From Elusimicrobiota bacterium (lineage in GTDB: Bacteria; Elusimicrobiota; Elusimicrobia; UBA1565; UBA9628), in the NCBI GenBank assembly GCA_023249645.1, contig JAHFCF010000009.1, forward strand, positions 27,772-91,771: a DNA stretch of 64,000 nucleotides, written 5' to 3'. Under the pieces are notes generated by a model, which was given only the letters and a program-made list of their open reading frames with translations, searched no databases and had not been told where the DNA came from. Within the stretch, counting starts at the first letter, position 1. Each line of letters opens with the position of its first letter. The position numbers and the translations under genes are program-made. Positions 5,430-46,262 of this stretch are shown one piece after another.

Positions 5430-5477
5430 TCAGCTTGAGAAATGTAGTCGACCTCATTGCTTCGTCGACATTAGGTA

Positions 5478-5483
5478 TATAAT
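5478..5483 (+). promoter_or_regulatory. Possible promoter -10 box upstream of the palindromic repeat
   Basis: A perfect TATAAT at 5478-5483 follows TTGCTT at 5457-5462 with a short 15-base spacer. No protein gene follows on this strand; the next feature is the long palindrome at 5541-5666. If active, it would make an untranslated RNA containing that hairpin. The spacer is suboptimal and AT-rich sequence makes chance matches likely. Confidence 0.25.
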
Positions 5484-5540
5484 TCTCTTCCTTAATACCC
5501 CCGTTTGAGCCCTCATGATTGGTGTGATTACTTTCAAGAA

Positions 5541-5666
5541 AGATGGCGGCACTATCTCGAATTATCTTTATTTTATAAATACTTTTTTTAAAATACCGCC
5601 AGCGCTGGCGGTAAAACAAAAAAAGTGATTATAAAATATGAATTTTCCGATATCGAGCCGCCATCT
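5541..5666. repeat. Long symmetric near-palindromic repeat, copy A
   Basis: A 126-base element with exact two-fold symmetry around 5603.5. The outer arms AGATGGCGGC and GCCGCCATCT (5541-5550 and 5657-5666) pair perfectly. The centre is a perfect 18-base palindrome, ACCGCCAGCGCTGGCGGT, at 5595-5612. Between them are AT-rich arms that pair partly (TATTTTATAA and ACTTTTTTT blocks against their complements). A second element with the same architecture lies at 45113-45235. Both are followed on the right by CGCCAT(C/G)TGGGAACTT (here 5659-5674). Possibilities are a MITE-like mobile element, a structured RNA or a cruciform-forming site. Confidence 0.8.
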
Positions 5667-5723
5667 GGGAACTTCCCATCATTCGTAGCGCGATTGGCGC
5701 TTTCAGATTATGAAGAATTCAGG

Positions 5724-6599
5724 TCACTCAAAACTCAAGGCCTGACCCCAGAAGGCTGACCCCAGAAGGACCAGGACCACGAGCACGAAGGCGTTGAGGT
5801 GGACGAAAGCGACCCGAAAAGAATCAGCGGCTTGCGCATGACGCAGCAGGCGCACGGCTTGACCCGTGAGCCATACGGATGCGACGAACAGCAAGAGGCA
5901 CGTCGTGGTCGAACCGACCACGCCGAAGAGGGGCAGGAGCAGAACCGAAGCCGCGACCATGCTCATCCAGACCGCGGTCAGGCGCGCCAGGCGGATCGGC
6001 CCGAATACCTCGGCCAGGTGAGGGAATCCCGCGCGCCCGAGGTCAGCCGACTGGCTCGGAACCAGCAGCCAGAAATGCGGCACCTGCCAGAGATAAAAGA
6101 AGAAGCAGAGGGCCACAAGCCTTGGATCCTGCCAAGGTCGCCCGGCTGAGAGCCAGCCGAGGATCGGCGGCACGACGCCGACCAGGGCGCCCGGCACCAC
6201 GGCGAAAGGTGTCACACGCTTCAAAGGCGTGTAAACGGCGATGTACCAAGCCACGGCCGCGGCCGCCAGAACGCTCCCCATCAGCCCGGCCGCTTTGAAG
6301 ACCAGGGCAAAACCTATCAGCAGAAAAACAAATGCCGTTGTCAGCGCTTGGCCGGGACTGAGACGGCCCGACGGCAATGGCCGATGCTGAGTACGCCGCA
6401 TCAGCCGATCGAGGTCCCGCTCCTGATACTCGTTGAGCGCGCAGGCTCCGCAAGCCAGCACGAACACGCCCGATCCCAGGAGCGCGGCGCGCCTGTCCAA
6501 GCCATGGGCGGCCAAGACAAAAACGGCCAAAGATGAAAGGCTCGCGGCCGCGCAGATGCGGATCTTGACCAGATCCGCCCAAAGCCGCCAGGACCTCAC
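5724..6599 (-). CDS. ctaB: Protoheme IX farnesyltransferase (heme O synthase)
   Basis: Integral membrane UbiA-family prenyltransferase, 291 residues. It adds a farnesyl group to heme B to make heme O for the terminal oxidase. The prenyl-diphosphate/Mg binding motif is NEYQERDLDRLMRRTQHRPL near residue 57, and YTPLKR and VPHFW blocks follow. About eight or nine hydrophobic segments are visible. The start overlaps the coxB stop by 4 bases, making it the last gene of the act-cox operon. An oddity: the last codons contain a perfect 14-base tandem duplication (5742-5755 and 5756-5769, CTGACCCCAGAAGG on the + strand). Because 14 is not a multiple of three, it changes the C-terminal reading frame. 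Confidence 0.93.
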   Translation of the reverse strand: MRSWRLWADLVKIRICAAASLSSLAVFVLAAHGLDRRAALLGSGVFVLACGACALNEYQERDLDRLMRRTQHRPLPSGRLSPGQALTTAFVFLLIGFALVFKAAGLMGSVLAAAAVAWYIAVYTPLKRVTPFAVVPGALVGVVPPILGWLSAGRPWQDPRLVALCFFFYLWQVPHFWLLVPSQSADLGRAGFPHLAEVFGPIRLARLTAVWMSMVAASVLLLPLFGVVGSTTTCLLLFVASVWLTGQAVRLLRHAQAADSFRVAFVHLNAFVLVVLVLLGSAFWGQALSFE

Positions 6600-35909: not shown

Positions 35910-36265
35910 ACCTCGGCGAGCGCTTCGACGTCTCCCCGGCGAAGGTCGAGGAACTCAAAGCCCGCATCGCCAAGCTCGGCATCCACGTCTCCCTGATCGA
36001 AGAGTCGTTCGTGCGCGGCTCAGGCAAGGGCGGACAGAAGATCAACAAGACCGCTAACTGCGTCCAGCTTTATTATCCCCCTCTGGATGTCCGAGTCCGC
36101 TGCCAGCGCGAGCGCAAGCGCACCATCAACCGCTTTTTAGCCCTGCGAGAGCTTGTCGATCGGATCGAGATGAAGGTGTCGCCTGAAACCTCGCAGCGCC
36201 TGCAGGACTTCGAACGCATCCGCCGCCGCAAGGCCCAAAAAAAGTATCGGGGCACTCGGGGTTGA
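35906..36265 (+). CDS. Class I release-factor-like protein (GGQ domain only)
   Basis: A 119-residue protein holding only the peptidyl-tRNA hydrolase domain of class I release factors. The GGQ motif is in [20 protein letters not shown] and a basic tail follows ([13 protein letters not shown]). It lacks codon-recognition domains, like ArfB/YaeJ and the mitochondrial ICT1 and C12orf65 proteins, so a ribosome-rescue role is likely. The start is a GTG that overlaps the sdhB stop (GTGA), with GAAGGA just upstream. Its last 19 bases overlap the 3' end of the tRNA-Pro gene on the other strand, so the C-terminal residues are encoded by the complement of a tRNA. Confidence 0.85.
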
Positions 36266-36319
36266 ACCGAGAACCTCCTGGTCCCAAACCAGGCGCTCTG
36301 CCAATTGAGCTATGCCCCG
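36247..36319 (-). tRNA. tRNA-Pro(UGG)
   Basis: A 73-base cloverleaf reads on the minus strand. The acceptor arms CGGGGCA and TGCCCCG pair fully, with discriminator A. The D arm is AGCTCAATTGGCAGAGC. The anticodon stem-loop is CCTGG-TTTGGGA-CCAGG with anticodon TGG. The T arm is CTCGG-TTCAACC-CCGAG. The CCA end is not encoded; after the discriminator comes TACTTTTTT, which may help termination. Confidence 0.96.
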
Positions 36320-45080: not shown

Positions 45081-45112
45081 GCAATCGCACAAGCGACCCG
45101 CATCCCGATCGG

Positions 45113-45235
45113 TGGCGACTTGAAAACAAAATTTTACTTTAAATATATGACTTTTTTACATTTCACTGTCAGCGCTGACAGTGACTTATTAAAAAATACT
45201 TAAAAAACCTACACTTCTCTTCTCACCAGTCGCCA
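45113..45235. repeat. Long symmetric near-palindromic repeat, copy B
   Basis: A 123-base element with two-fold symmetry around 45174. The outer arms TGGCGACT and AGTCGCCA (45113-45120 and 45228-45235) pair perfectly. The centre is a perfect 18-base palindrome, ACTGTCAGCGCTGACAGT, at 45165-45182. AT-rich partly pairing arms lie between. Compared with copy A at 5541-5666, the central palindrome differs at two positions and both partner positions change to keep pairing; the outer arm shows a third such change. CGCCATGTGGGAACTT follows at 45231-45246. It lies directly upstream of the HNH gene. Confidence 0.8.
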
Positions 45236-45263
45236 TGTGGGAACTTTTTTCAAGGTCGATCGT

Positions 45264-46262
45264 ATGTATATCATGGAGCTGGAACTCACAAAGCTTTCCA
45301 ATGATGCCTTGCTCGGCAAGATAGAAGCGCTGGCCGAGACAGAACGATTCAGCCTGATCGATCTCCTCATCCATCTGGGAGAACTGGACCAGCGTACTGC
45401 CTGCCAAAACTGGGGCTACCCTTCCGTGTTCGTTTTCCTGACACGCCGCCTTGGCTATTCCGAGTCCGATGCCATGAGACGCATTCGGACCGCCCGTGCG
45501 GCACGGAAATACCCATCGATTTTGCGCATGCTCGCCGCAGGCGAACTGCACCTGGTCAGCGTGTCTCTCTTGGAACCTCTGCTCACGTCCGAAAACCATG
45601 AGCGTCTGCTTCGGCAAGCCTCGCGCAGGAGCACGCGAGATGTGCAACGCTTGGTCGCTGACATTTCCCCTGCGACAGCAGAGCCGCGCGACCAAATCCG
45701 ACAACTCCCTCCGCCATGCGCTGCCGCGCCAAGTCCCCCCGACGCGCCCCACTTAGAAAGCCCCTTTCTCGATCTGGAGCTTGTCCCGCCAAGCGATCCC
45801 GTCGCCGAGGCGACTCTGACAGACAAGCGTGTGGCATTCTCCTTCACCGCTGACGCGCAGGTTCAAAGCTGGTTCGAGCAGGCGCGCGACTTGCTGCGGC
45901 ACCGGTTTCCCATAGGACGGATGGAAGAGGTATTCGGCGAGGCCCTCAGACGCTTGGTGACGCAAGAGCTCTTCGCAAAACCGAGCCGGCGTAAAAAGAA
46001 GAAGCCCACTTCTCCTGGAGCTCGGCATATCCCAAAGTGGGTGCAGGACGAGGTCTGGCAGAGGGATGCGGGCCGATGCAGCTACACTGGGCCGGACGGC
46101 GTGCGTTGCGGAGCGACCGCATGGCTGGAATACGACCACATCATCCCGGGGGCCCTGGGAGGAAGATCGGACGATGCGTCGAACATCCGGCTCCTGTGCC
46201 GCGCGCACAACAAATCAGAAGCGCAGCGTCTCGGCTTATGGAAGGGTCCAAAGACCGCTTGA
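45264..46262 (+). CDS. HNH endonuclease-domain protein
   Basis: A 332-residue protein with an N-terminal helical domain (ELTKLSNDALLGKIEALA, then DLLIHLGELDQR) and a C-terminal HNH nuclease domain. The HNH core is RDAGRCSYTGPDGVRC for the first zinc pair, EYDHIIPGALGG for the catalytic His, and NIRLLCRAHNKSEAQR for the final His/Asn. Basic KKKKP residues precede it. Proteins of this layout are common and often multi-copy in GC-rich genomes; their role is unsettled. I chose ATG 45264 with CAAGG upstream; the frame opens at GTG 45237 at the edge of repeat B. The element-gene pair may be mobile. Confidence 0.85.
   Translation: MYIMELELTKLSNDALLGKIEALAETERFSLIDLLIHLGELDQRTACQNWGYPSVFVFLTRRLGYSESDAMRRIRTARAARKYPSILRMLAAGELHLVSVSLLEPLLTSENHERLLRQASRRSTRDVQRLVADISPATAEPRDQIRQLPPPCAAAPSPPDAPHLESPFLDLELVPPSDPVAEATLTDKRVAFSFTADAQVQSWFEQARDLLRHRFPIGRMEEVFGEALRRLVTQELFAKPSRRKKKKPTSPGARHIPKWVQDEVWQRDAGRCSYTGPDGVRCGATAWLEYDHIIPGALGGRSDDASNIRLLCRAHNKSEAQRLGLWKGPKTA

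What the first reader, a model, noticed from the sequence alone, without database searches (positions are those of the whole stretch)
5541..5666. A 123-126 base symmetric repeat family with compensating base-pair changes
Copies at 5541-5666 and 45113-45235 are both symmetric about their midpoints and built alike: outer arms, AT-rich arms, and a central perfect 18-base palindrome. Between copies the centre changes from ACCGCCAGCGCTGGCGGT to ACTGTCAGCGCTGACAGT, two changes on each side that keep every pair. The outer arm shows a third paired change (GGCGGC/GCCGCC to GGCGAC/GTCGCC). A 16-base block, CGCCAT(C/G)TGGGAACTT, follows each with one difference. Paired changes indicate selection for structure (RNA hairpin or DNA cruciform) or a mobile element with constrained ends. 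I know of no named family that matches.
Basis: partly seen in the sequence, partly recalled or inferred. Interest (0 to 1): 0.78.

Follow-up and report, generated by a model that had tools for sequence, protein, structure and literature searches.

The report
Palindromic repeats paired with nuclease genes
A bacterium of the phylum Elusimicrobiota carries 29 scattered copies of a roughly 127-base self-complementary DNA element, and a copy sits in front of every gene found of one type of DNA-cutting HNH enzyme, which suggests a small mobile-DNA family with an unusual partner enzyme.

Summary
Both copies exist as described, and the own genome holds exactly 29 copies. In the central palindrome 6 of 10 pairs change on both sides and 96% of cells stay paired. 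Copies are nearly all intergenic. At the two junctions tested, five congeners keep the gene order and lack the element, so it moves.

Copy 2 lies directly upstream of a DUF222-like HNH nuclease gene. All 13 close relatives of that gene, in 11 genomes, have the same palindrome 23-188 bases upstream; none of 24 distant relatives does. Two other genomes have an unrelated palindrome of the same build, again upstream of an HNH gene and as solo copies.

Best reading: a REPIN-like non-autonomous family whose partner is an HNH nuclease instead of a RAYT. Mobility and partnership are supported; nuclease-driven movement is inferred. Copy 1 lies inside a decayed MITE.

The parts
5541..5666 (.). Copy 1 of the nested palindrome (centre 5595-5612)
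   Evidence: Sequence, inverted-repeat search, fold z -7.95, R2 hit at G000:C32:33313-33438
5667..5674 (+). GGGAACTT, remnant of the -35 box of the HNH promoter; no gene of that kind follows
   Evidence: at this copy GGAAC to CGTA is 11 nt apart instead of 16-17
5434..5723 (.). Decayed MITE shell around copy 1: left end CTTGAGAAATGTAGTCGACC, right end GAAGAATTCAGG; flanks TCAG/TCAC
   Evidence: Homology of both flanks with L065 (-33..+137; by eye further out) and the intact shells listed
45111..45237 (+). Copy 2 of the nested palindrome (centre 45165-45182), directly upstream of the HNH gene
   Evidence: R2 hit at G000:C32:72882-73009
45240..45264 (+). Promoter-like motif GGAACTTTTTTCAAGGTCGATCGTA (GGAAC-N16-CGTA); ECF-sigma type by inference
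   Evidence: 30 of 34 HNH loci upstream, 0 of 34 downstream
45273..46262 (+). HNH nuclease gene, DUF222-like N-terminal part; proposed partner of the palindrome
   Evidence: Pfam HNH above cut-off, DUF222 below it; HNH residues invariant among 11 relatives

Best explanation
The repeat is a miniature, non-autonomous mobile element: a nested palindrome of about 127 bp with outer arms ATGGCGAC/GTCGCCAT, AT-rich arms and a 16-20 bp GC-rich palindromic centre. It is the cis partner of a subfamily of DUF222-like HNH nuclease genes. A copy lies just upstream of the promoter of each such gene; other copies are dispersed in intergenic DNA. Proposed mechanism: the nuclease recognises its own palindrome type, as an extruded cruciform, a single-stranded hairpin or a symmetric dimer site, and the cut promotes copying of the element to new places in trans, as RAYT transposases are thought to do for REPINs. 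The need to stay self-complementary keeps the paired changes. Shown here: copy number, covariation, intergenic spread, absence from orthologous junctions, strict linkage to one HNH subfamily, and a second unrelated palindrome type linked to its own HNH genes. Inferred: that the nuclease acts on the palindrome, and the copying step.
For: 29 copies in the own genome and no weaker ones; centre covariation; empty junctions in five congeners; palindrome 23-188 nt upstream of all 13 HNH loci at 60% identity or more and of 0 of 24 loci at 47% or less; the 11 genomes with that subfamily are all among the 14 with palindromes, of 57; an independent palindrome type in G009 (1 HNH-linked, 4 solo) and G012 (1 next to a decayed HNH gene, 2 solo); one own-genome HNH-linked copy nests in a supported clade of solo copies that all carry the promoter remnant; catalytic HNH residues conserved.
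Against: No experiment shows that the nuclease touches the palindrome. G036 has two HNH-linked palindromes and no solo copy. G044 has about ten solo copies and no close HNH relative found, though it is a draft genome. Some copies travelled inside MITE shells. No target duplication was found for bare palindromes. Genomes are related, so the co-occurrence statistic is inflated, and in several genomes the HNH-linked copy is the only copy.
Confidence: 0.5

Rival explanations
1. The palindrome is a regulatory or insulating DNA site of the HNH genes (an operator next to the -35 box, or a barrier to read-through). The dispersed copies are debris of HNH units that lost their gene, or were carried around by MITEs; the nuclease does not move them.
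For: The palindrome abuts the promoter in the own genome; 12 of 26 solo copies keep a GGGAACTT remnant; at least five copies sit inside MITE shells with target duplications; several distant HNH genes have only a short palindrome by the promoter.
Against: 14 solo copies have no promoter remnant and end near the palindrome termini. The distance to the promoter ranges widely among relatives. The four Y1 genes and one of the HNH genes share the promoter without this palindrome.
Confidence: 0.25
2. The elements are REPIN-like repeats moved by the Y1 (RAYT-like) transposases of the same genome.
For: Four Y1_Tnp genes are present and share the promoter with the HNH genes; size and build resemble REPINs (PMC3116915).
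Against: No copy adjoins a Y1 gene: the 29 places are kilobases away from the four Y1 genes. The Y1 genes have other repeats beside them (GTCAGGCCTTGAGTTTTGAGTGAC and TGCCTGGCA). No GTAG or CGTC tag at the ends (by eye).
Confidence: 0.1
3. The paired changes come from template-switch correction of the quasipalindrome during replication, not from selection; the element may be a neutral repeat.
For: Such correction is an accepted source of paired changes (PMC8794818). At the T-A/C-G pairs almost no G-U intermediates are seen.
Against: Broken intermediates (G/A, T/C) persist at one pair in several copies, which a fast correction process should remove. It does not explain the strict linkage to HNH genes. 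It is compatible with the best explanation and competes only for the paired changes.
Confidence: 0.1
4. The element encodes a structured RNA of about 120 nt.
For: The copies can fold into long hairpins.
Against: The HNH promoter lies downstream of the palindrome and reads away from it. No Rfam family reaches its threshold. No terminator-like site at either copy. Broken pairs are not of the G-U kind.
Confidence: 0.04

Closest known systems
REPINs with RAYT (TnpA-REP) transposases (PMC3116915, PMC3733652)
   Same: Miniature hairpin-forming elements, mostly extragenic, with a linked partner enzyme gene and solo copies; different palindrome types go with different partner lineages; mostly between convergent or co-directional genes.
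   Different: The linked gene encodes an HNH nuclease, not a Y1 transposase; no GTAG or CGTC tag; the centre is a perfect palindrome without spacer; copy number is 29, not hundreds.
REP13E12 / 13E12 repeat family (DUF222-HNH) of mycobacteria
   Same: Multi-copy genes for DUF222-like HNH proteins, treated as repetitive elements (PMC10589994).
   Different: I know of no palindromic partner or solo palindrome described for it (own knowledge; not tested here). DUF222 scores below Pfam's cut-off in this protein.
MITE-like bacterial repeats (ERIC, RUP, Correia elements; own knowledge)
   Same: About 100-150 bp, imperfect palindromes, intergenic, thought to move in trans.
   Different: No target duplication and no parental DDE transposase were found for the bare palindrome. 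The 243-311 bp shells around some copies are ordinary MITEs with YTAN duplications.
Homing endonuclease genes of the HNH type
   Same: An HNH nuclease gene that appears at several places.
   Different: No intron or intein context; homing gives allelic copies, whereas these solo copies lie at unrelated sites.

Membership tests
REPIN / RAYT system | Partner gene is a Y1 (IS200-like) tyrosine transposase next to a copy | tested here: not met
   Four Y1 genes in the own genome, none beside any of the 29 copies
REPIN / RAYT system | Two inverted copies forming one hairpin, dispersed between genes | tested here: met
REPIN / RAYT system | GTAG or CGTC tag at the palindrome end | tested here: not met
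   Ends read ATGGCGAC/GTCGCCAT; by eye
MITE (bare palindrome) | Target-site duplication | tested here: inconclusive
   No consistent duplication by eye; empty sites are too diverged to read the junction
MITE (shell around copy 1 and five others) | Terminal inverted repeats and target duplication | tested here: met
   20-bp ends; 4-bp duplication perfect in 4 of 7 shells other than copy 1; in copy 1 the ends are decayed and the flanks agree in 3 of 4
DUF222-HNH (13E12) protein family | HNH domain above the curated cut-off | tested here: met
   PF01844 23.6 bits, cut-off 21.4
DUF222-HNH (13E12) protein family | DUF222 domain above the curated cut-off | tested here: not met
   PF02720 17.1 bits, cut-off 24.4, E 0.0035
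Known structured RNA (Rfam) | Match at the gathering score | tested here: not met
   Only a tRNA at 36247-36319

The most novel reading that the evidence does not exclude
DUF222-like HNH nucleases and their cognate nested palindromes form a transposition or homing pair that works like RAYT-REPIN but with an HNH nuclease, each nuclease lineage co-evolving with its own palindrome sequence.
Probability: 0.3. Interest if true: 0.82.

Novelty: new variant of a known kind. Interest (0 to 1): 0.6.

Why it matters
Multi-copy DUF222/HNH genes (the mycobacterial 13E12 family among them) have, to my knowledge, no established role. A conserved, lineage-specific DNA partner gives a concrete substrate to test, and would add an HNH nuclease to the known drivers of miniature mobile DNA. 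Two palindrome types, each with HNH-linked and solo copies, make a ready test of co-evolving recognition. The shared promoter also points to a small regulon of HNH, Y1 transposase and ORF6N genes.

Tried and rejected
Intrinsic terminator: the T-run lies on the wrong side of the hairpin and the scan finds none. Integron attC site: no GTTRRRY/RYYYAAC cores and no cassette array (by eye). Known RNA: none in Rfam. Viral origin: a viral-contig scan found no HNH relative. Generic folding scores upstream against downstream of HNH genes do not discriminate well (z at or below -4 in 12 against 5 of 34 loci) and were not used as evidence. A structure prediction of the HNH protein was requested but had not finished; family and PDB searches gave only weak matches to HNH parts of IscB, Cas9 and SAVED-HNH proteins. 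Insertion junctions could not be read to the base because the spacers are diverged. The 16-base block as an element of its own: rejected, it is the palindrome end plus a -35 box.

Full report
What is there. The two copies are at 5541-5666 and 45111-45237 as described. Copy 1 folds as one long nested hairpin (DNA parameters, z -7.95); copy 2 pairs well at its outer arms and centre and poorly in between (z -3.1). The window lies in a 2.27-Mb assembly of 38 contigs. Named relatives of the neighbouring HNH gene are Elusimicrobia MAGs, so the phylum is inferred from them.

Family size. A covariance model from four copies found copies in 14 of 57 related genomes. A second model from 29 copies finds exactly 29 places in the own genome, each hit on both strands. 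The consensus is ATGGCGAC(C/T)TT..AT-rich..ACTTTTTT..TACYNYCNNCGNNGRNRGTA..AAAAAAGT..TTATAAAATA..AAGTCGCCAT. Several different perfect centres occur (CCGCC-AGCGCT, CTGTC-AGCGCT, CTTTC-CCCGGG, CCTCC-ACCGGT and others). Six of ten pairs change on both sides; score 0.451 against 0.05-0.20 for slid partners. Broken intermediates, mostly G/A or T/C, sit at one pair.

Is it mobile? Nearly all copies are intergenic, with about 11 convergent, 13 co-directional and 1 divergent context by a simple ORF reading. Similarity between solo copies stops near the palindrome ends. For two copies the flanking genes (gltX/recN and hemG/hemH by my reading of the sequence, not confirmed by a family search) are adjacent in five other species of the genus without the element. 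The insertion point cannot be read to the base.

The partner gene. Copy 2 lies directly upstream of an HNH nuclease gene (Pfam HNH above cut-off, DUF222 below it) whose HNH residues are invariant among 11 relatives. Two paralogues at 75-77% identity in the same genome also have a copy directly upstream. Across relatives all 13 HNH loci at 60% identity or more have the palindrome on the sense strand 23-188 nt upstream; 24 more distant loci have none. The 11 genomes with this subfamily all lie among the 14 with palindromes; kinship is not corrected for, and in several genomes the HNH-linked copy is the only copy. More distant HNH genes in G036, G009 and G012 have palindromes of the same build but other sequence. 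The G009/G012 type (outer arm ATGGTCGA, centre GTGTCACNGTGACAC) has one HNH-linked copy in each of the two genomes plus 4 and 2 solo copies, and is otherwise absent from the 57 genomes except for a weak match in G035. In G036 there are no solo copies.

The 16-base block. GGGAACTT is the -35 part of GGAAC-N16/17-CGTA, present upstream of 30 of 34 HNH genes and downstream of none. In 227 kb of own-genome sequence there are ten matches: five HNH, four Y1_Tnp (RAYT-like) and one ORF6N gene. The motif looks like an ECF-sigma promoter; that is inference from general knowledge of such promoters. Twelve of the 26 solo copies, copy 1 among them, keep only the -35 remnant. The sampled sequence was fetched partly because of these genes, so the regulon list is biased and not complete.

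MITE shells. Five copies, and copy 1 in decayed form (5434-5723), sit inside shells of 243-311 bp with 20-bp terminal inverted repeats. Two further shells (379 and 434 bp) lack the palindrome. The 4-bp YTAN duplication is perfect in 4 of these 7 shells. Four further copies share a second kind of flank. Such shells have probably carried some copies around.

How it works. The simplest reading that covers all of this is a miniature mobile element partnered with an HNH nuclease. It works like REPIN-RAYT but is not a member of it: no Y1 gene adjoins any copy and the end tags are absent. Nuclease action on the palindrome and the copying step are inferred. The main rival is that the palindrome is a regulatory or insulating site of HNH genes and that dispersal was passive. 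The paired changes may reflect selection for symmetry or template-switch correction (PMC8794818); the data do not decide between them.

Limits. All genomes are draft assemblies; gene calls are simple ORFs; kinship inflates the co-occurrence statistic; no experiment exists. Literature searches found no description of such a pair, in a library that lacks most subscription journals.

Noticed in passing
window 45240-45264; L237:4350, L238:8324 and 4073, L239:3220, L062:3276, L240:2856, L241:4682: One promoter-like motif (GGAACTTTTT-N-TCGATCGTA) is shared by five HNH genes, four Y1_Tnp genes and one ORF6N gene of the own genome, which suggests a common regulon of nuclease and transposase-like genes.
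   Followed up: partly
window 5723-5746 (minus strand): A 24-base repeat GTCAGGCCTTGAGTTTTGAGTGAC directly beside the MITE end; the same sequence lies upstream of a Y1_Tnp gene (L237) and near L064, so it may be a repeat of that transposase.
   Followed up: partly
window 5742-5769: Tandem 14-base repeat CTGACCCCAGAAGG, two copies.
   Followed up: no
G000:C20:108135-108513 and C11:16249-16682 (L138, L136): MITEs with CCTGAANNNTTCAGTTGA ends and perfect TTAA/CTAA duplications that hold other small palindromes instead of this one.
   Followed up: partly
L240 (G000:C10); L165, L167, L169, L170: A more distant HNH gene lies divergently next to what reads as the start of uvrA in several genera, a stable place beside a DNA-repair gene (gene name by eye).
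   Followed up: no
L119 near 2830-2870 (same sequence in L161): The left outer arm of the palindrome upstream of the HNH gene is tandemly duplicated (CGACGGCGACTTCGCGCTGACG repeated).
   Followed up: no
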